Assembly: GCF_004001245.1 (NCBI RefSeq)
Contig: NZ_AP018724.1
Coordinates: 1,852,501-1,916,500, forward strand
Direction: 5' to 3'
Origin: Sulfurivermis fontis
GTDB taxonomy: Bacteria; Pseudomonadota; Gammaproteobacteria; Thiohalomonadales; Thiohalomonadaceae
Length of the DNA stretch: 64,000 nt
Part shown: one piece after another, positions 7,967 to 15,323 of the stretch
How positions within the stretch are numbered: the stretch's first letter is position 1
Layout: every line of letters starts with the position of its first letter
Translations under genes and position numbers: made by a program
The notes under the pieces: model-generated
What the model was told of the DNA's origin: nothing
What the model saw: only the letters and a program-made list of their open reading frames with translations
The model's database searches: none

Positions 7967-8119
7967 GGAAGGTCTGAATAAGTCCATCCTGGACTTTTCA
8001 GACCACGCCAAGCGAAAAGTGTGATTTTCGCTTGGCTTCATTTTTCAACGACTTATCGTCGTTGAAAAATGGCGGCACATCCCTGTGCCGCGGAAGCTCT
8101 GAACTTATTCAGAGCTTCC
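7967..8119 (+). mobile_element. MITE copy 1 (short form, 153 bp)
   Basis: The ends GGAAGGTCTGAATAAGT and, inverted, GGAAGCTCTGAATAAGT are 17-base terminal inverted repeats with one mismatch. Flanks are CCAA on the left and CTAA on the right, an imperfect 4-base target duplication. Inside are three hairpins (a CCAAGCG stem, a TTTTTCAACGA stem and a GCGGCACA stem). No coding capacity is seen. It lies after lon, nested between two inverted GCAAAGACG repeat arms. Confidence 0.88.
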
Positions 8120-8166
8120 CTAACTTTGCGACCTTCGCGTCCTTTGCGTCTTTGCGTTGAAAGCCT
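8120..8166 (-). repeat. GCAAAGACGCAAAG repeat arm, right (inverted)
   Basis: The reverse complement reads AACGCAAAGACGCAAAGGAC, matching the arm at 7838-7884. It ends at the hemH stop codon. The 333-base lon-hemH gap is filled by these arms, MITE copy 1 and about 80 bases of unrecognised sequence (7885-7966). Confidence 0.75.
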
Positions 8167-9165
8167 TTAGCTTTCTCCCAGGCACAACTCCCGCGCCACA
8201 ATGCCGGCCAGGGCGGCGATGTGGTCGGGGCGGTCGTTGAGAGCGGGGATGTAGTGGAAGGACTCGCCACCGGCGTGCAGGAACAATTTGCGGTTTTCGC
8301 CGGCGATCTCCTCCAGAGTCTCCAGGCAATCGGCGGAGAAACCGGGGCAGATCACCTGTACGTGCCTGATGCCCTGCGCCGGCAATGCCTGAAGCACTTC
8401 ATCGGTATACGGTTGCAACCACGGCTCACGCCCGAAACGCGACTGGAAGGACACCTGCCACTCGTCTCCCTTCAATCCCAGGCGCTCCGCCGTCAACTGT
8501 GCGGTGACAAGGCACTGCTGATAGTACGGATCACCCTCGCTACGATAGCGTTCCGGCGTGCCGTGGAAGGAAAACAGCAGCCGCTGCACCGGCCCGGCCT
8601 CCTGCCGCGCCTCGCGCACCGAGGCGGCCAGGGCATCGATGTAGGCGGCATCGGCGTGATAGTCCGCCACGAAGCGCAGCGACGGCACATCGCGCGTGGC
8701 GCGCAGCGCCTCGGCCAGCGCATCGAAGGTGGAGGCGGTGGTGGAGCAGGAATTCTGCGGATACAACGGCAGCACCAGCACCTGCTGCACGCCGGCGGCG
8801 CGCAGTTCGGCCAGTGCCGCGGCGATGGAGGGATTGCCGTAGCGCATGCCGAGGGCCACCCGGGTCCGTCCCGGCCACTGCGCCTCCAGCGCCTGCTGCA
8901 ACAGCGCCTGCTGGCGCCGCGCGATGAGCAGCAGCGGTGAACCTTCGGCAGTCCATACCTTGCGGTACAGCCGCGCCGAGCGGGCCGGGCGGGTGCGCAG
9001 GATGATGCCGTGCAGGATCGGCCACCACAGCGGCCGCGGCACATCCACCACGCGGCGGTCCCACAGGAACTCGGCCAGATAGCGGCGCAGCGCCGGCGGG
9101 GTCGGCGCATCGGGGGTGCCCAGGTTGGTCAGCAGGATGCCGAGCGGCGCGCTGGAATCACTCAC
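8167..9165 (-). CDS. hemH: Ferrochelatase
   Basis: Inserts Fe2+ into protoporphyrin IX, the last step of haem b synthesis. The 332-residue protein shows GILLTNLGTPDAP at the N-terminus, PLYPQNSCSTT around the metal/substrate region, FSFHGTPERYRSEGDPY with the catalytic histidine, and FQSRFGREPWLQPYTDE. The start is a GTG at 9165 with GGAG 8 bases upstream; an upstream ATG adds 21 residues without family similarity. It is the last gene of a four-gene minus-strand run starting with the MoxR gene. Confidence 0.95.
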   Translation of the reverse strand: MSDSSAPLGILLTNLGTPDAPTPPALRRYLAEFLWDRRVVDVPRPLWWPILHGIILRTRPARSARLYRKVWTAEGSPLLLIARRQQALLQQALEAQWPGRTRVALGMRYGNPSIAAALAELRAAGVQQVLVLPLYPQNSCSTTASTFDALAEALRATRDVPSLRFVADYHADAAYIDALAASVREARQEAGPVQRLLFSFHGTPERYRSEGDPYYQQCLVTAQLTAERLGLKGDEWQVSFQSRFGREPWLQPYTDEVLQALPAQGIRHVQVICPGFSADCLETLEEIAGENRKLFLHAGGESFHYIPALNDRPDHIAALAGIVARELCLGES

Positions 9166-9202
9166 GGCATGCACTCCAGGTCGTTCGTTCGGCGCGAGTA
9201 TA

Positions 9203-10315
9203 TCAATGCCGTCCGCGCAGTACGGCAAACTGCTGCAGGATCGGCGTCACCACCGGCTCGATCTTCTTGCGCATCACGGTACCGACCGCGTCGCTGTGGG
9301 CGAAGATCGGGGTCACGATGGCCTCGTCGATGTGGGCCAGAAATACCATGGCGCGGATCTCGGCAGCCAACTGCGGCACCCCCTGCAGCAACTCGCACAG
9401 TTCGCCGCTGCCCGCGGCACACAGGGCCGCCACGCTGGCAGCGATGGCCTCGATCTCGCGCAGGCTGGGGGCGGCGGGACGTGCGGCCTGGAAATAGCGG
9501 CCGATGGCGTTGACCAGCGCCGTCACCACGTCCTGATCCGCCGGCTTGTGCAGTGCGTCGGCTCCCACGTCGAGGAAGGTCTGGCCCGGGCTATCCAGCA
9601 GCCTGAGCAGCAGCGCGGCACAGGCGTTGTGTGCCGCCAGCGGGGCCAGCAGTGGCCGGTATTGTTCCACATCGGCGCGGGCCGGCACCGCATCGGGCAG
9701 GTTGTCCGGCTCGGCGGCGAGGAAACCGACGCGATAGGTCTTGCGGGTACGCCCGGCATCCCACAACCGCTTGCGGGTTTCGGCGCTGATCAGTCCGGGC
9801 TGCAATACCAGGCGCACCGTATCCAGCATGTCCTGGTGTTCGCTCTCGAAGGGCAGATGCTCCACCAGAAACTCCGCCAGCACCGGCCCCATGCTGCCGG
9901 CCACCACCAGCGGATGTTCCAGCATGCGCCGCGCATTCTCCGCATACGGCGCCACCCACCAGGCGCGACGCGCCAGTTCGTCGGTGAGCTGGCGCGAGCG
10001 GGTCACCGCCACCACCGCCTCCGGCTCGCCGATCATCAGCAGCTTGTCCAGATCCTCGTTGTTGATCTGGCCCATGCGGGTCCAGCGACGCAGGAATACC
10101 GGATAGCCGCCGGGCGAACCCAGCACCTGCCCCGACAGCAGTTCGCGCACCCGTTGCAGATACTGCTCGCTGCGTCCGGTGGGATTGAGCGACACCTTCA
10201 TCTCGCGGTCACCCTTGAGGCCGTACACCGTCATGTTGTTTTCGTCGATGCGGATCGCCTCGGCATTGGCGATGAGCACGTTCAGGCGCAGACTGTCTTC
10301 GCTGGAAAGTTCCAT
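9203..10315 (-). CDS. DsrS-like conserved protein of unknown function
   Basis: A 370-residue protein with no signal peptide or membrane segment and no catalytic motif that I can name. Its start (MELSSEDSLRLNVLIANAEA) and segments such as VLGSPGGYPVFLRRWTRMGQ and LARRAWWVAPYAENARRML match my memory of DsrS, the cytoplasmic accessory protein at the end of the Allochromatium dsr sulfur-oxidation operon. Here it follows a VWA/metallopeptidase gene by 48 bases, with no dsr genes nearby. The name is from recall, not from a search. The role is unknown. Confidence 0.55.
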   Translation of the reverse strand: MELSSEDSLRLNVLIANAEAIRIDENNMTVYGLKGDREMKVSLNPTGRSEQYLQRVRELLSGQVLGSPGGYPVFLRRWTRMGQINNEDLDKLLMIGEPEAVVAVTRSRQLTDELARRAWWVAPYAENARRMLEHPLVVAGSMGPVLAEFLVEHLPFESEHQDMLDTVRLVLQPGLISAETRKRLWDAGRTRKTYRVGFLAAEPDNLPDAVPARADVEQYRPLLAPLAAHNACAALLLRLLDSPGQTFLDVGADALHKPADQDVVTALVNAIGRYFQAARPAAPSLREIEAIAASVAALCAAGSGELCELLQGVPQLAAEIRAMVFLAHIDEAIVTPIFAHSDAVGTVMRKKIEPVVTPILQQFAVLRGRH

Positions 10316-10363
10316 AAAATCGCTGTCCGTTACGGGTTCCGTGCGGGATGACGCCCGCAGGCG

Positions 10364-11611
10364 TCAATTGAGTTGTATGCGCTGTCCCCAGGGCACCTTG
10401 CCCTTGCCTTTCACCAGCCAGATCACCGGGAAGCCGGGCTCCTGCGCGGGAAAGGCGCCATCGGCGTCGGTGAAATAGACCAGCAGGTCGGGACGGCGGC
10501 CTTCGCGCTCCAGCCAGTCGAACACCGGCAGGAAAGATGTCCCGCCGCCGCCCTTGAACGCACGCGGCAACTTGAACTCTTCCCACGGCTCAAAGCTCCA
10601 CGGCCCGTCGTCGGCCAATTGCGCATCGCAGGCATGCAGGGTGATGCGGGCACGCACCTGCCCCTTGATGGCATCGATCTCGGCGAGGAACTCGCCCATC
10701 TCCTGGTCGCTGACCGAGCCGCTGGTATCCAGCGCCACCACGATATCGATCTCGGAGGAGCGCAGGCTGGGGAAGATGGCGTCGCCCTCGCGGCGCGAGG
10801 GACGCGCATAGTTATAGTCGTCACGCGCGGTGGCGGTCATGTATCTGGCCAGCAGCATGCGCCAGGGCAGTTGCGGTTGCAGCAGGTGGTCGATGAGCCG
10901 CGCCAGCGCGCCGCCCAGCTTGCCGGCCTGCAAGGCCTGCTGTGCCGCACCGGCCATGCGCTGACGCCACTGCACCGCCAGGCGTTCGCGCTCTTCATGG
11001 GACAGCGGTTCCGGTTTGGGCGCCCCGCCCTGGCCGCCCTGTTGCTGCGGCTGCGGCTTGCCGCTGCCGCCCTTGTCGTCCTTGTCCTCCGGGGTGGCCT
11101 GGCCACCACCGCCCTCGCCCTTGTCGCCGCCGCTGCCGGCCTTGCCCCCCTGATCGCCGCTGTCCTGGTCGTAGACATGGTCGTCATGGGGTTGCAGCGA
11201 GTCGGCCTCGTCCAGGCAGGGATAGATCTCCTCCGCCGTCATGCCCTTGTACTCCTCGAGGAACAGGGCGTCCTGCACCGGCGTCAGCCCCTCGTCGATG
11301 AGCAGCGGATTGATGGCGAGGTCGCAGGCGACATCCCAGCGGTGGCGGTCGCGGTGCTGACGGCGCGCGAAGTGCGACAGCGCGCAGTGCAGCGCCTCAT
11401 GGGCCAGGGCGAACTGGGTCTGATCGAGGGTCAACGCGTCCATGTAGTCGGCGTTGTAATAGAAGGTGCGCGCGTCGGTGGCCGTGGTCTTGCACCAGCG
11501 CGGATCGGCGGCCACCAGCGGCAGGCGCAGCACCAGGGCGCCGAGGAACGGCTTGTCCAGGATCAGCTTGGTGCGCGCGGCGCTGAGTTTGGTTTCGAGA
11601 TCGCCTGACAT
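10364..11611 (-). CDS. Putative metallopeptidase with VWA domain (MoxR-associated)
   Basis: This 415-residue cytoplasmic protein has an N-terminal peptidase-like domain with HEALH at residues 71-75, the HExxH zinc signature. A Gly/Gln/Lys-rich linker (about 165-215) follows, then a C-terminal von Willebrand A-like domain with a MIDAS motif DTSGSVS near residue 289. It sits between a MoxR ATPase and the DsrS-like gene, the usual pairing of MoxR ATPases with VWA proteins in metal-centre or complex assembly. The start at 11611 is preceded by a repeat element rather than a clear ribosome site, so it is less certain. Confidence 0.8.
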   Translation of the reverse strand: MSGDLETKLSAARTKLILDKPFLGALVLRLPLVAADPRWCKTTATDARTFYYNADYMDALTLDQTQFALAHEALHCALSHFARRQHRDRHRWDVACDLAINPLLIDEGLTPVQDALFLEEYKGMTAEEIYPCLDEADSLQPHDDHVYDQDSGDQGGKAGSGGDKGEGGGGQATPEDKDDKGGSGKPQPQQQGGQGGAPKPEPLSHEERERLAVQWRQRMAGAAQQALQAGKLGGALARLIDHLLQPQLPWRMLLARYMTATARDDYNYARPSRREGDAIFPSLRSSEIDIVVALDTSGSVSDQEMGEFLAEIDAIKGQVRARITLHACDAQLADDGPWSFEPWEEFKLPRAFKGGGGTSFLPVFDWLEREGRRPDLLVYFTDADGAFPAQEPGFPVIWLVKGKGKVPWGQRIQLN

Positions 11612-11614
11612 AAA

Positions 11615-11720
11615 GCGATTAAACACAAAGACACAAAGGACGCCAAGAGCGCGAAGAAATACAGGAAGCAAAGAACACATCCCTTTGTGTACTCTGCGCT
11701 CTTTGCGTCTTTGCGTTTAA
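11615..11720. repeat. GCAAAGACGC inverted-repeat element
   Basis: Two arms, forward ATTAAACACAAAGACACAAA near the left end and inverted CTTTGCGTCTTTGCGTTTAA near the right end, enclose about 45 bases and can fold into a long hairpin. The arms match those flanking MITE copy 1. The element lies between the MoxR and VWA genes and fills almost the whole intergenic gap. Confidence 0.75.
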
Positions 11721-11726
11721 CATGCT

Positions 11727-12773
11727 TTACATCTCATAGAGCATCACGTCGGCCACGGCCTGCGCCCAGGGCGCAAACTCGGGCACGCTGAAGATTTCCT
11801 GGCCGATGGCGCGGTGCATGTCGGACACCAGCATCACGCCCATCTCGCGCTGGCTGAAGCGGCCGGCGAATTCCAGGATCGGCCCGTACACCTCGGCCCC
11901 CTTCCGCTCGGCCTTGGCGCGCAGGGCGCGGGCCACCAGCGCGGAGGCTACGGCGTATTGCAGGTCGATCTCGCGTGGCACCGGCACCATCTCGCGGCGC
12001 AGGATGGCATCCAGATCGGGGAGCTTGTCCAGGTTGCGCACGAAGGCGGCCGCTTCGATGCCAGCCGCTGGACCGACACAGGCTTGCAGGGTCTCCACCA
12101 ATAGCTGATGTGCCTCGCCGAATTTTTTCAGCGCACGGTGGGCAAACTCCCAGGAACGTGGTGAGGGGAAGGCAATGGGATTGTGCGCCGGGTCGAAATC
12201 GAACAGCAATTCGGGACGGAAGCGCAGAAAGGCGATGATGCGTTCGTCGATACCGTTGCGGTAGGCCCACAGCACCCAGTCGTCGAGATGAGTCTCCACC
12301 TCGAAGTGGGCGAAACGGTTGGCCAGCGGTGCCGGCATGGCATAGGTGACACCGCGATCACCCTGGCGGTTGCCGGCGGCGAAGATGGCCCACCCCTCGG
12401 GCACACGGTATTCGCCGAGGCGGCGATCGAGGATCAGCTGGTAGGCGGCGGCGGAAACGGACGGCGGTGCCGAGGTGATTTCATCGAGAAACAGGATACC
12501 GGCCGGGCCGTGCCGCCTGGCATCGGGCAGCATGGCCGGCACCGCCCATTCCACCTGGCCTTCGCTACGGAACGGGATGCCGCGCAGGTCGCTCGGCTCC
12601 ATCTGCGACAGACGGATATCGATCACCGGCACCCGATGGCGCGCCGCCACCTGGGCCACCATCTGCGACTTGCCGACACCGGGCGGCCCCCACAGCATCA
12701 CCGGCGTGTGATGGCCGTCGTGCGTGCTCGCAAATTCCCGTTCCAGAACCTCGGTGATGTGTGCCGGACGCAT
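11727..12773 (-). CDS. MoxR-family AAA+ ATPase
   Basis: A 348-residue AAA+ ATPase with Walker A GPPGVGKS at residues 29-36, Walker B ILFLDEIT near 92-99, and the sensor region AAGNRQGDRG typical of MoxR proteins. MoxR ATPases remodel partner complexes together with VWA-domain proteins, and the next gene is exactly such a protein. The pair with the DsrS-like gene downstream suggests an assembly or activation module. The substrate is not visible. The start ATG at 12773 is followed by the full family N-terminus. Confidence 0.88.
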   Translation of the reverse strand: MRPAHITEVLEREFASTHDGHHTPVMLWGPPGVGKSQMVAQVAARHRVPVIDIRLSQMEPSDLRGIPFRSEGQVEWAVPAMLPDARRHGPAGILFLDEITSAPPSVSAAAYQLILDRRLGEYRVPEGWAIFAAGNRQGDRGVTYAMPAPLANRFAHFEVETHLDDWVLWAYRNGIDERIIAFLRFRPELLFDFDPAHNPIAFPSPRSWEFAHRALKKFGEAHQLLVETLQACVGPAAGIEAAAFVRNLDKLPDLDAILRREMVPVPREIDLQYAVASALVARALRAKAERKGAEVYGPILEFAGRFSQREMGVMLVSDMHRAIGQEIFSVPEFAPWAQAVADVMLYEM

Positions 12774-12926
12774 CGATACTCCCCGTTATGTGGCAAAGGA
12801 CAATAGTTTACTTTATTTGTCGGATACACAAAACAGGGAGTGGAGGTCGGTGCGGCAAGTTCCAAGTCGCAAGTTTCAAGTGGCGCTACAACACCACCGA
12901 AACCCGCGTCCGGAAACCGGCAGGAT

Positions 12927-13298
12927 TCAGCCCCGCTGTTGCTGCTGCTCCGCCACCTGCTTGTGCACCTCGGCCATGTCCAGTTCCTTGGCACGCTGCA
13001 GCAAGTTCTTCAGTTGGGACGGCTGCAGGGCACCCGCCTCGGAATAGATGATCACCTGCTCGCGGAAAATCATCAGCGTGGGGATGGAACGGATCTGGAA
13101 CAGGCCACCCAGCTCCTGCTCCTCTTCGGTATTCACCTTGGCGAACACGATGTCGGGATGATGTTCCGACTCCGCCTCGAACACCGGACCGAAGCCCTGG
13201 CAGGGGCCGCACCACGGCGCCCAGAAATCGATGATGACGAAATCGTTGTTGTTGATGATCTGTTCGAAATTATCTTTGGTCATGTGCACGGTGGCCAT
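12927..13298 (-). CDS. Thioredoxin-family protein
   Basis: A 123-residue cytoplasmic thioredoxin with the active site WCGPC at residues 29-33 and the cis-proline segment IRSIPTLMIF. The C-terminus ends in a Gln-rich tail (EQQQQRG). No signal peptide is seen. I start at the second ATG of the frame (13298), because the thioredoxin fold begins there; an ATG at 13331 would add 11 unrelated residues, yet only that one has a purine-rich sequence at normal distance. A possible insertion sequence border falls in this upstream region. Confidence 0.85.
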   Translation of the reverse strand: MATVHMTKDNFEQIINNNDFVIIDFWAPWCGPCQGFGPVFEAESEHHPDIVFAKVNTEEEQELGGLFQIRSIPTLMIFREQVIIYSEAGALQPSQLKNLLQRAKELDMAEVHKQVAEQQQQRG

Positions 13299-13422
13299 GG
13301 CGGTACTATATGGACGCCTCCCGTTTGCCAAGGGCGATTTTGGTGTGTTGGGACAGATAGGCTGCAGTTCTATATCCGGCCTGTTGTGCAGGAATAGACC
13401 TGCTGGCCCTGATGGAATCCGC

Positions 13423-13486
13423 TGACCCGCGCCTCATTCTCCTGAAGGACTCGAAGTCCTTACCGCCATACAGGTTTGGCGGGTCA
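13423..13486 (-). ncRNA. Candidate structured RNA (seekRNA/bridge-RNA-like) of the IS1111 element
   Basis: Downstream of the transposase, an 8-bp stem (13423-13430 with 13479-13486) encloses a perfect 7-bp hairpin (13445-13451 with 13455-13461, three-base loop). IS110/IS1111 elements are known to encode a guide RNA in their noncoding end, on the downstream side in the IS1111 group. The position fits; the pairing loops are not identified. Confidence 0.35.
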
Positions 13487-13582
13487 CGGTCTGACCTGTT
13501 TGCCATCACACTTTATCGACCTTGCGCAACCTTTACGGCGGCCACTCCTTTCTTCAAAGTGGTTGATACACTCGTCAGGCAC

Positions 13583-14608
13583 CTATGCCGGCTGACTGAC
13601 GAATCCCTTTTGGTACGTCCGTTCATGGGCGAGCATCGCCCAGATCGTTCGCGCCATCTTGTTGGCCAGGGCCACGACCGCGACATTCAGCGGCCGGCGC
13701 TGGCGTAATTTCGTGACCCACGGGCCGGGGTCTTTGGCGTGGGTCAGCACGGATCGCGCACCGTGAATCAGCAAGGTGCGCAGGTAGGTGTCACCGCGCT
13801 TGCTGATGCCGAGCAGTTTGATGCGCCCACCAGTGCCCACCTGTCGCGGCACCAGGCCGGCGAAGGCGGCGAACTCTCGCCCCGACTTGAAGGCTTTGGC
13901 GTCGCCCATGATGGCGACCGCCGCCGTGGCGGTCAGCGGCCCGACACCAGGAATTTCAGCGATTCGCTTGCAAGCTTCGTCTTGCTTGAGCCACAGCTGG
14001 ATGCGCTGCTCGATGGCGGCGATTTCCCCATCCAGCTTCTCGATGCGCGCCCATTGCTCGCGCAACGTATCGATCACCATTGCCGGCAGCCGGTCTTCCA
14101 GTCTGGCCAAAGCCGCAGCAATTCCCTTCCTGACCCCCGCTTTGCCCTGCGGCATCACTTCACCGTATTCGGCGAGCAACCCCCGCAGGCCGTTAATCTG
14201 CGCGGTGCGGAACTTGACCAACTGGCTCCTCATGCGGTGCAGCGCCAGGATGGCCTGCTGTTCTTCCGTCTTGATCGCCACCGCCTTGACGTGCGGCTGC
14301 TGCACCGCTGTCCAGATCGCCCGCGCGTCCTGCCGGTCGTTCTTGTTGCCGGTGACGAACGGCTTCACCGCCTTGCCTGGCAGGAGCTTGACCTGGTGGC
14401 CCAGCGCCGTGAGTTTCCTCGCCCAGTGCTGCGCACCGCCGCAGGCTTCCATCCCAATGAGGCATGGTTGCCGGTTAGCGAAGTGTTCGAGGAACTTCTC
14501 GCGCTTGAGCTGCAGGCTCACGATCTCTCCGGTCTCCATGTCGATCCAGTGCAACTGAAATACCCGCTTGGCGATATCCACGCCAACGACCGTTTTGCTA
14601 CCATTCAT
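13583..14608 (-). CDS. IS110-family transposase (IS1111 group)
   Basis: A 341-residue DEDD-type transposase/recombinase. The N-terminal RuvC-like domain has VVGVDIAKRVFQLH at residues 7-20, IGMEACGG near 57-64 and KNDRQDARAI near 92-101. The C-terminal Tnp domain has EIPGVGPLTATAAVA and GISKRGDTYLRTLLIHGAR with the catalytic serine. The start at 14608 has GGAGGG upstream; longer readings add a leader without similarity. The frame is intact, so the element may be active. Confidence 0.93.
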   Translation of the reverse strand: MNGSKTVVGVDIAKRVFQLHWIDMETGEIVSLQLKREKFLEHFANRQPCLIGMEACGGAQHWARKLTALGHQVKLLPGKAVKPFVTGNKNDRQDARAIWTAVQQPHVKAVAIKTEEQQAILALHRMRSQLVKFRTAQINGLRGLLAEYGEVMPQGKAGVRKGIAAALARLEDRLPAMVIDTLREQWARIEKLDGEIAAIEQRIQLWLKQDEACKRIAEIPGVGPLTATAAVAIMGDAKAFKSGREFAAFAGLVPRQVGTGGRIKLLGISKRGDTYLRTLLIHGARSVLTHAKDPGPWVTKLRQRRPLNVAVVALANKMARTIWAMLAHERTYQKGFVSQPA

Positions 14609-14927
14609 TTCGGACCCTCCGGTTTGCCTGTGAAGACCTTCAGTATCTTCCACCTTGGGCACTTCGATGCCGTCGGCCCGTGAGGGTCCACCTTCATCCC
14701 ACCCACACCGCAAAGCTATCCACGGCGCCGGGCGCCGCAGGTCCCTCCATACCGAAGACGGCCAGCGCGCCGGATAACTCGTGTTCAGCGCTCACGGGGT
14801 GGGAGGCGTCCATTCAATTCTCCGTTCGCTGATTGCGGGAAGAAAGGTCTGAAGCGGACCGGCGGCATGCCGTGACGTACGACAGACGGGTAATGGTGAA
14901 ACATTAGCCTACCTTAATGTTGCCCGG

Positions 14928-15323
14928 TTAAACACCTCGGCCGGTAAAACGGATGATCCGGCGCCGGCCACGCTTGTCCGGCCGGCGCGCCGGCAGCACC
15001 CCGGCGGCAGCGGCGAGACGCCGTTCCTCCGCCAGCGCTTCGCGCCGCTGGCGGCTCTCCTCGCTTTCCCGGTAAAGCTGTTGCGCCGCCGTTGCCGGAC
15101 CGCGCCGCTCCGACAAACCTGTCACAGTGATCACGAACTCCAAACCCGCCTTGCGGATTGCCAGTTCGTCGCCGCATTGCACGCCGCGCGACGGTTTCGG
15201 CCGCACACCATTGAGATAAACATGGCCGCCGTTGATAGCCTCCACCGCCAGGGCACGGGTCTTGTAGAAGCGCGCCGCCCATAGCCACTTGTCCAACCGC
15301 AGTGCGACTCCCGCCTCACTCAT
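14928..15323 (-). CDS. hslR: Heat-shock protein 15 (ribosome-associated S4 protein)
   Basis: Hsp15 binds stalled 50S subunits carrying nascent chains and recycles them. The 131-residue protein starts with an S4 RNA-binding domain (RLDKWLWAARFYKTRALA, residues 9-26, and the GGHVYLNG segment). It ends in a basic tail (DKRGRRRIIRFTGRGV), as in E. coli HslR. Its start overlaps the upstream zinc-ribbon gene by 8 bases, so the two are translationally coupled. Confidence 0.92.
   Translation of the reverse strand: MSEAGVALRLDKWLWAARFYKTRALAVEAINGGHVYLNGVRPKPSRGVQCGDELAIRKAGLEFVITVTGLSERRGPATAAQQLYRESEESRQRREALAEERRLAAAAGVLPARRPDKRGRRRIIRFTGRGV

What the first reader, a model, noticed from the sequence alone, without database searches (positions are those of the whole stretch)
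9203..12773. MoxR, metallopeptidase-VWA and DsrS-like gene set
A MoxR ATPase, a protein combining HEALH and a MIDAS motif, and a DsrS-like protein lie in order on one strand. MoxR-VWA pairs are known for assembling metal centres or complexes. A zinc-protease motif in the VWA partner and a DsrS-like third member, away from dsr genes, suggest an unstudied maturation system, perhaps for a sulfur or haem enzyme (hemH is next).
Basis: partly seen in the sequence, partly recalled or inferred. Interest (0 to 1): 0.55.

Follow-up and report, generated by a model that had tools for sequence, protein, structure and literature searches.

The report
ATPase module of reverse Dsr pathway
Three neighbouring genes (a molecular-motor ATPase, its metal-binding adaptor and the unexplained sulfur protein DsrS) travel together through sulfur-oxidising bacteria and sometimes sit inside the sulfur-oxidation operon itself, so they are probably a helper machine for that pathway, which makes the role of DsrS testable.

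Summary
On the minus strand lie an AAA+ (MoxR-like) ATPase (11727-12773), a protein with a putative metallopeptidase domain plus a VWA domain (PF13203+PF09967, 10364-11680) and DsrS (9203-10315), a full-length relative (about 50% identity) of the protein encoded after dsrN-dsrR in real dsr operons.

Of 370 Gammaproteobacteria genomes, DsrS is in 107 and the VWA protein in 108, 103 holding both; 102 of the 107 have dsrA and two more have dsrK. MoxR was found in 28 of 28 tested genomes with both. In two genomes of one genus the order on one strand is dsrABEFHCMKLJOPNR-MoxR-VWA-dsrS. The window's genome has an oxidative dsr operon (dsrA to dsrR, no dsrS) about 373 kb away.

Best reading: MoxR-VWA-DsrS is an ATP-driven maturation or reactivation module for a reverse-Dsr component, working like CbbQO or NorQD, with DsrS (predicted alpha-solenoid) as target adaptor. 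The haem (hemH) idea is not supported. HEALH is degenerate in 4 of 47 homologues, so proteolysis is probably not the core activity. 22 dsrA-bearing genomes lack the module and three have it without detected dsrA or dsrK: it is an accessory, not indispensable.

The parts
11727..12773 (-). MoxR-like AAA+ ATPase, 348 aa
   Evidence: AAA_5 43.9 bits over cut-off 22; 74-95% identical to 19 partners in other loci, Walker A and B invariant in the 20 rows
12666..12689 (-). Walker A motif GPPGVGKS (residues 29-36 of the ATPase)
   Evidence: invariant in 20 of 20 aligned rows
10364..11680 (-). DUF2201_N (putative metallopeptidase) + DUF2201 (VWA) adaptor; likely true start ATG at 11611
   Evidence: Pfam E 2.8e-48 and 1.5e-23; aligned homologues begin near residue 24; sequence read
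11387..11401 (-). HEALH motif (residues 94-98)
   Evidence: H94 43/47, E95 44/47, H98 47/47; NQALH in L084, L085, L099 and REALH in L094
10715..10729 (-). MIDAS core DTSGS (residues 318-322), completed by T381 (10538-10540) and D405 (10466-10468)
   Evidence: the five MIDAS residues 47 of 47; VWA fold Z 13.0 to a solved VWA domain
9203..10315 (-). DsrS, 370 aa, predicted alpha-solenoid with a small N-terminal beta element
   Evidence: about 50% identity to DsrS copies that follow dsrN-dsrR; AlphaFold2 pLDDT 90.4
8167..9228 (-). hemH, ferrochelatase: neighbour, not part of the module
   Evidence: TIGR00109 E 1.3e-95; found in 12 of 80 named loci, 11 of them near relatives
12927..13331 (-). thioredoxin gene directly upstream of the ATPase; link to the module unproven
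   Evidence: PF00085 E 1.3e-24; upstream of MoxR also in L026, L027, L031, L034, L035, L037
8072..8091 (-). terminator-like hairpin downstream of hemH
   Evidence: 8 pairs, 6 G-C, then CATTTTTC; 7 such sites found in 8000-15000 against 4.7 (sd 2.2) in shuffles, so not significant alone

Best explanation
MoxR, the DUF2201 VWA protein and DsrS form an ATP-driven remodelling module for the reverse dissimilatory sulfite reductase (rDsr) sulfur-oxidation system. SHOWN here: the genes are real, co-inherited, co-occur with rDsr and in some genomes are embedded in or joined to the dsr operon. INFERRED: a MoxR ring hydrolyses ATP and moves the VWA adaptor. The adaptor's MIDAS metal grips an acidic residue on the target, as proposed for CbbO. 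DsrS, a solenoid protein, brings in a specific Dsr component. The most likely target is DsrAB, at the stage of inserting or restoring its coupled sirohaem and iron-sulfur cofactor, or of releasing it from an inhibited state. Likelihoods: the three genes act in the rDsr pathway, about 0.9; they do so as an AAA+ maturation or reactivation machine, about 0.6; the target is DsrAB itself, about 0.35.
For: Co-occurrence in 370 Gammaproteobacteria genomes, own included: DsrS 107, VWA 108, both 103; DsrS and dsrA 102; all three 98. Two of the five DsrS+ dsrA- genomes carry DsrK at 76-78% identity, so 104 of 107 have dsr genes. MoxR: 28 of 28 tested DsrS+VWA+ genomes (the G318 match holds one stop codon), 0 of 13 controls, 0 intact in 22 dsrA+ genomes without DsrS and VWA, one of which has a 133-residue fragment. 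In 14 genomes searched because their DsrS lies apart from the pair (13 of the 29 named loci without VWA, plus L078), all 14 hold MoxR and VWA, among them Thiohalobacter thiocyanaticus and the Escarpia symbiont. Nearness: DsrS within 33 kb of dsrA in 37 of 102 genomes, most of them 10-20 kb. Operon embedding: L218 (G185) dsrABEFHCMKLJOPNR-MoxR-VWA-dsrS on one strand, with 42, 82 and 4 bases between the last four; same order in L215 (G059, same genus); dsrA to dsrP, 3 kb, then MoxR-VWA-dsrS in L223 (G365); MoxR-VWA-dsrS-dsrA in L214 (G097). Loss together: on a DsrA tree of 51 operon rows DsrS changes 11 times; in 6 supported independent pairs VWA follows in 5-6 and never goes the other way. In the 1.2 Mb genome G370 all three are decayed while dsrA and dsrK are intact. 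The five MIDAS residues 47 of 47.
Against: 22 of 125 dsrA+ genomes have neither DsrS nor VWA; several are about 1 Mb reduced genomes but others are 2-5 Mb, and 21 of the 22 show dsrA, B, E, F, H, C and M together, so the module is not strictly needed. Three genomes have the module without detected dsrA or dsrK; one of them, G130, is rated 100% complete. Within the named loci only L091 and L103 of 80 show several dsr genes around DsrS; neither has the pair there. In L195 and L210 dsrS follows dsrR without the pair. G062 and G156 have DsrS but no MoxR or VWA. Nothing here shows physical contact, ATPase activity or which Dsr protein is the target. The predicted fold of DsrS has no confident relative (best Foldseek E 0.11; best Z 7.0), so 'target adaptor' is inferred.
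Confidence: 0.6

Rival explanations
1. The module serves another Dsr component (the DsrMKJOP membrane complex, DsrL, or the DsrEFH-DsrC sulfur relay) and not DsrAB.
For: The whole dsr set co-occurs, so co-occurrence cannot single out one target; the module follows dsrP in L223 and dsrR in L215 and L218. E. coli RavA-ViaA, another MoxR-VWA pair, is proposed to help complex I maturation (PMC3893208, abstract and passages).
Against: None direct. A sirohaem synthase (CysG) gene follows DsrS in L051 and L231, which leans to a sirohaem enzyme.
Confidence: 0.3
2. The VWA protein is a working zinc protease of minigluzincin type that trims or degrades a Dsr protein (quality control); MoxR feeds it.
For: HEALH-type motif intact in 43 of 47 homologues, H98 and D120 invariant. 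The N-terminal domain resembles selecase (Foldseek prob 0.94, E 0.082, 77 columns; profile E 0.024).
Against: The first His and/or the Glu is replaced in 4 of 47 homologues that keep the complete MIDAS. The resemblance to selecase is weak.
Confidence: 0.15
3. The genes merely share a lifestyle with rDsr (sulfur-oxidising autotrophs) and act elsewhere, for example on Rubisco or APS reductase.
For: Three genomes have the module without detected dsrA or dsrK, and they have Rubisco. In many genomes the module is far from dsr. Strong Rubisco matches are commoner in module+dsrA+ genomes (23 of 25) than in dsrA+ genomes without it (14 of 22; six of the eight without are about 1 Mb genomes).
Against: aprA is over cut-off in 24 of 25 module+dsrA+ genomes and in 18 of 22 dsrA+ genomes without the module, so it hardly tracks it. 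G061 and G187 have the module but only weak Rubisco-like matches of about 1e-22 to 1e-23. The module is inside the dsr operon in L215 and L218.
Confidence: 0.08
4. The set matures a haem enzyme together with hemH.
For: hemH follows DsrS in the window and close relatives.
Against: hemH was found in 12 of 80 named loci, 11 of them near relatives. The set tracks dsrA.
Confidence: 0.03

Closest known systems
CbbQ-CbbO Rubisco activase (MoxR AAA+ with VWA adaptor)
   Same: AAA+ protein plus a separate VWA protein with MIDAS (PMC5437159, passages); profile match of the ATPase to solved CbbQ at E 2.5e-5
   Different: The VWA protein is not found by the VWA_CoxE family search of its own genome (that CbbO falls under this model is recalled). 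It carries a metallopeptidase-like N-terminal domain. There is a third conserved partner, DsrS. The genes are linked to rDsr.
NorQ-NorD (nitric oxide reductase)
   Same: AAA+ plus VWA pair; NorQ in the profile hits at E 0.001 and a NorQD entry in the fold hits (E 0.065)
   Different: Weak sequence relation; different target operon and no DsrS (recalled)
RavA-ViaA (E. coli)
   Same: MoxR-VWA pair tied to iron-sulfur assembly and respiratory enzymes (PMC3893208, abstract and passages)
   Different: Proposed target is complex I; a DsrS-like partner is not mentioned in what I saw
DsrS of the dsr operon (Allochromatium Alvin_1265)
   Same: Family member by about 50% identity to DsrS copies after dsrR in L103 and L091; PMC3368242 (passage) says the function of DsrS is still not resolved
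   Different: Here dsrS sits with MoxR-VWA instead of after dsrR; [quoted passage not shown] Alvin_1265 itself was not compared.
Midasin (Rea1)
   Same: Best solved relative of the ATPase by profile (E 1.8e-17)
   Different: Single giant eukaryotic ribosome-assembly protein (recalled)

Membership tests
DsrS | Full-length sequence relation to the protein encoded after dsrN-dsrR | tested here: met
   49.9% over 373 columns to L103 and 52% over 370 to L091, whose upstream genes are dsrM-K-L-J-O-P-N-R
DsrS | Gene at the end of the dsr operon | tested here: not met
   The window copy follows MoxR-VWA; the own dsr operon shows no DsrS match and the genome has one DsrS match only. The family itself is found both ways
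MoxR-clade AAA+ ATPase | AAA+ core with Walker A and B | tested here: met
   AAA_5 43.9 bits; Walker motifs invariant in 20 of 20
MoxR-clade AAA+ ATPase | MoxR-type Pfam model AAA_3 over its cut-off | tested here: not met
   18.9 bits against 27; 'MoxR' is therefore meant in the broad clade sense
MoxR-clade AAA+ ATPase | Helix-2 insert | not tested
   No structure of the ATPase was predicted; feature taken from PMC7159879 (passage)
MoxR-clade AAA+ ATPase | Paired gene for a VWA protein with MIDAS | tested here: met
   MoxR, VWA and DsrS together in 45 of 80 named loci; MoxR in 28 of 28 tested DsrS+VWA+ genomes; MIDAS 47 of 47
CbbO/CoxE-type VWA (PF05762) | Match to the family model | tested here: not met
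   Search of the own genome hit one other place (2999471-2999785), not the window
DUF2201 / DUF2201_N | Both Pfam models over cut-off | tested here: met
   165.3 bits (cut-off 23.2) and 83.7 bits (cut-off 26.4); 47 of 47 homologues match both at E up to 1e-5
Minigluzincin metallopeptidase | HExxH plus a third ligand | tested here: inconclusive
   HExxH in the window and 43 of 47 homologues; D120 invariant 22 residues on as a possible ligand; 4 of 47 lack the first His and/or the Glu
Minigluzincin metallopeptidase | Proteolytic activity | not testable with these tools
   Needs protein

The most novel reading that the evidence does not exclude
MoxR-VWA-DsrS is a dedicated reactivase or cofactor maturase of reverse-acting DsrAB, a counterpart of Rubisco activase for the sulfur cycle. 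DsrS would be its substrate-recognition subunit, and the HExxH domain a repurposed, sometimes dead, peptidase acting as a structural adaptor.
Probability: 0.33. Interest if true: 0.8.

Novelty: new variant of a known kind. Interest (0 to 1): 0.6.

Why it matters
DsrS has been listed among Dsr proteins without a function (PMC3368242, passage: 'still not resolved'). The data here give it two partners and a machine type, and suggest that the dsr gene set of many Gammaproteobacteria should be extended by moxR and vwa. If an ATP-driven helper builds or keeps reverse Dsr active, that would bear on how the pathway is matured and on reading sulfur oxidation from genomes. It is directly testable by gene deletion in a tractable sulfur oxidiser.

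Tried and rejected
Haem link through hemH: rejected as the main idea, since hemH was found in 12 of 80 named loci, 11 of them near relatives. Rubisco link: module genomes G061 and G187 have only weak Rubisco-like matches; against this, strong Rubisco is commoner with the module (23 of 25) than without it (14 of 22), which six of the eight Rubisco-less being about 1 Mb genomes may explain. APS reductase link: aprA over cut-off in 24 of 25 with the module and 18 of 22 without. Anti-phage reading: PADLOC gives only an E 0.0005 P-loop match of the ATPase. Module tied to one DsrA type: dsrA+ genomes without DsrS are scattered over the DsrA tree, so no.

Fold of DsrS: no PDB match with E up to 0.001; HEAT/ARM-like rows at Z up to 7.0 may be only a common helical arrangement, so no relative is claimed. 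Sequence profile of DsrS against PDB: nothing better than E 0.24. The whole-protein VWA model has pLDDT 75.8; its VWA domain alone gives firm matches.

Phylum-wide search with DsrS: 5 of 397; the 25 rows shown are all of the same class and 372 were not shown, so it does not tell whether DsrS exists outside Gammaproteobacteria. The sigma-70 scan of 8000-15000 found nothing beyond chance (1 found, 1.3 expected).

Limits of the counts: the lists were copied by hand into. From, 13 of 121 genomes with only weak matches (E worse than 1e-15) were dropped, seven of them over the Pfam cut-off. From, 104 of 229 were dropped as other sulfite-reductase relatives, keeping the 123 over cut-off plus partials G253 and G214. 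DsrS hits include fragments (G074 with a stop, G383 contig ends, G370 decayed, G076 partial). Fisher p-values ignore kinship. The 51 rows were chosen partly by DsrS state, and a DsrA tree is not a species tree, so its sign test (median p 0.03) is only supportive. The 14 genomes are 13 of the 29 named loci without VWA, plus L078; at least some appear to be the same genomes as in the 370 (for example L047 and G010, by equal contig length and coordinates), and in L029 the pair appears to lie only about 12 kb from DsrS. The regions were picked because the genes lay near dsrA or because dsrA was missing.

Literature: searches listed no paper that I saw joining MoxR or VWA with DsrS or rDsr. The two hits mention MoxR in other contexts (passages). 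One search was swamped by other meanings of DSRS. Most subscription papers are not held, among them the DsrR paper PMC2832516, so prior mention cannot be excluded.
Full report
What is there. Minus strand, in order: thioredoxin (12927-13331), an AAA+ ATPase (11727-12773), a DUF2201_N+DUF2201 protein (10364-11680, likely start 11611), DsrS (9203-10315), hemH (8167-9228). The window lies in a 3.25 Mb single-contig genome; the best-matching named records are Gammaproteobacteria, two of them labelled Thiohalomonas denitrificans. The ATPase keeps its Walker motifs. The second protein keeps HEALH and a full MIDAS. The third has no Pfam or NCBIfam match.

Is the third protein really DsrS? Yes by sequence. 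In the Escarpia symbiont contig (L103) the genes before it were scanned with NCBIfam: DsrK (603.8 bits), DsrO (310) and DsrC/TusE (164) are over cut-off; DsrM, DsrJ and DsrP match below cut-off; DsrL, DsrN and DsrR are named from their relatives and their place. The next gene is 50% identical to the window protein; L091 shows the same order with 52%. Allochromatium DsrS itself was not compared.

Do the three genes co-occur? DsrS was found in 24 of 39 genomes of relatives, own included. In 370 Gammaproteobacteria genomes at least 90% complete, own included, DsrS is in 107, the VWA protein in 108 after dropping 13 weak hits, and dsrA in 125 (123 over cut-off plus two partials). DsrS and VWA share 103; DsrS and dsrA 102; all three 98. 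Of five DsrS+ genomes without dsrA, G080 and G259 carry DsrK at 76-78% identity; G130, G282 and G298 do not. MoxR was sought in 72 chosen genomes: 28 of 28 with DsrS and VWA have it (E 2.3e-180 or better; the G318 match holds one stop codon), 0 of 13 controls, 0 intact of 22 with dsrA but neither partner (G115 has a 133-residue piece), 0 intact of 4 with DsrS but no VWA. Among 5 with VWA but no DsrS, G078 has it, three have more distant relatives and one has none.

Where are they? In 57 of 103 genomes DsrS and VWA start within 4 kb; 67 have both on one contig. DsrS lies within 33 kb of dsrA in 37 of 102 genomes, on the same contig but over 90 kb away in 10, and on another contig in the rest. 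Of 80 named loci, 45 show all three genes and 29 show no VWA. To see whether those 29 are counter-examples, 13 of them plus L078 (pair at a distance) were searched as whole genomes, with three positive controls: all 17 hold both MoxR and VWA. So where DsrS stands apart, the pair is elsewhere but not lost, in those tested.

Direct operon evidence. In L218 (G185) one strand reads dsrA-B-E-F-H-C-M-K-L-J-O-P-N-R-MoxR-VWA-dsrS, with 42, 82 and 4 bases between the last four; the dsrS frame runs to the contig end. L215 (G059, same genus) has the same order with about 500 bases between MoxR and VWA. L223 (G365) has dsrA to dsrP, about 3 kb, then the three genes on the same strand. L214 (G097) has MoxR-VWA-dsrS and then dsrA on the same strand. 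In others (for example L217, L220, L222) the three genes lie some 10-16 kb from dsrA, outside the operon; in L195 and L210 dsrS follows dsrR without the pair. Of the 80 named loci only L091 and L103 show several dsr genes round DsrS, without the pair. In the window's genome the dsr operon, dsrA, B, E, F, H, C, M, K, L, J, O, P, N, R, starts at 1488396 and has no dsrS. That dsrS can lie outside the cluster is in print for two Thioalkalivibrio species (PMC5328954, passage).

Is it only kinship? On a DsrA tree of 64 rows the DsrS-negative genomes are scattered; DsrS needs 11 changes over 51 operon rows; in 6 supported independent pairs VWA changes with DsrS in 5-6 and never against it (rows were partly chosen by DsrS state). 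G370, a 1.2 Mb genome, keeps dsrA and dsrK while DsrS is in pieces and MoxR and VWA remnants carry stops, as expected of genes that lose their use together.

How it may work. MoxR-clade AAA+ proteins work with VWA co-chaperones, among other things in metal-cluster insertion (PMC7159879, passages). [quoted passage not shown] RavA-ViaA is linked to iron-sulfur assembly and respiratory enzymes (PMC3893208, abstract and passages). By analogy the MIDAS (47 of 47 conserved) would grip a Dsr protein, and DsrS, a confident and largely helical solenoid prediction (pLDDT 90.4), would give specificity. DsrAB is my first choice because it holds a coupled sirohaem-iron-sulfur cofactor (recalled) and because CysG follows DsrS in L051 and L231. 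This choice is inference.

Is it a protease? The N-terminal domain weakly resembles selecase and the HExxH is usual, but three homologues have NQALH and one REALH while H98, C99, H103, C119, D120 and the MIDAS are invariant. A strictly catalytic role would not tolerate this, unless those four have changed function.

Results against. 22 dsrA+ genomes live without DsrS and VWA, 21 of them with dsrA, B, E, F, H, C and M together; at least one rated-complete genome (G130) has the module without dsrA or dsrK, though a DsrC-like gene lies nearby; G062 and G156 have DsrS alone; strong Rubisco matches are somewhat commoner with the module than without it (23 of 25 against 14 of 22). The module is therefore an accessory to rDsr and may have a second use.

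Known or new? The parts are of known kinds. The joining of this AAA+/DUF2201 pair with DsrS and rDsr was not listed by the paper searches, which cover open-licence papers only. I rate it a new variant of the MoxR-VWA chaperone kind.

Noticed in passing
L178, L180, L182, L184, L185, L188, L190, L192, L200, L209, L212, L168: Several genomes carry a dsrA copy with few or no other dsr genes round it (in G256 it is the only copy found over cut-off); seven of the twelve form one well supported clade in the DsrA tree.
   Followed up: partly
L084, L085, L099, L094 (VWA genes): The HExxH motif is replaced by NQALH or REALH while the invariant residues H98, C99, H103, C119, D120 and the MIDAS stay.
   Followed up: partly
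L051 11138-13409; L231 6912-9729: A 178-179 aa protein without Pfam match and the sirohaem synthase CysG lie just downstream of DsrS; L051 also has a glutaredoxin between them, and L231 a DUF3050 protein after CysG.
   Followed up: no
G370 (contig C1, 1.2 Mb): A reduced genome in which MoxR, VWA and DsrS are all decayed while dsrA and dsrK remain.
   Followed up: partly
G130 contig C42 (L231): Intact MoxR, VWA and DsrS frames in a genome rated 100% complete with no dsrA match over cut-off and only a 31% DsrK-like match.
   Followed up: partly
window 13583-14713 (-): A 376 aa ORF that looks like an IS110-type transposase (recalled resemblance, not searched) upstream of the thioredoxin gene.
   Followed up: no
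window 11612-11726: The spacer between the ATPase and VWA genes holds stretches that look like inverted repeats (not tested), from which the 23 extra N-terminal residues of the listed ORF are partly read.
   Followed up: no
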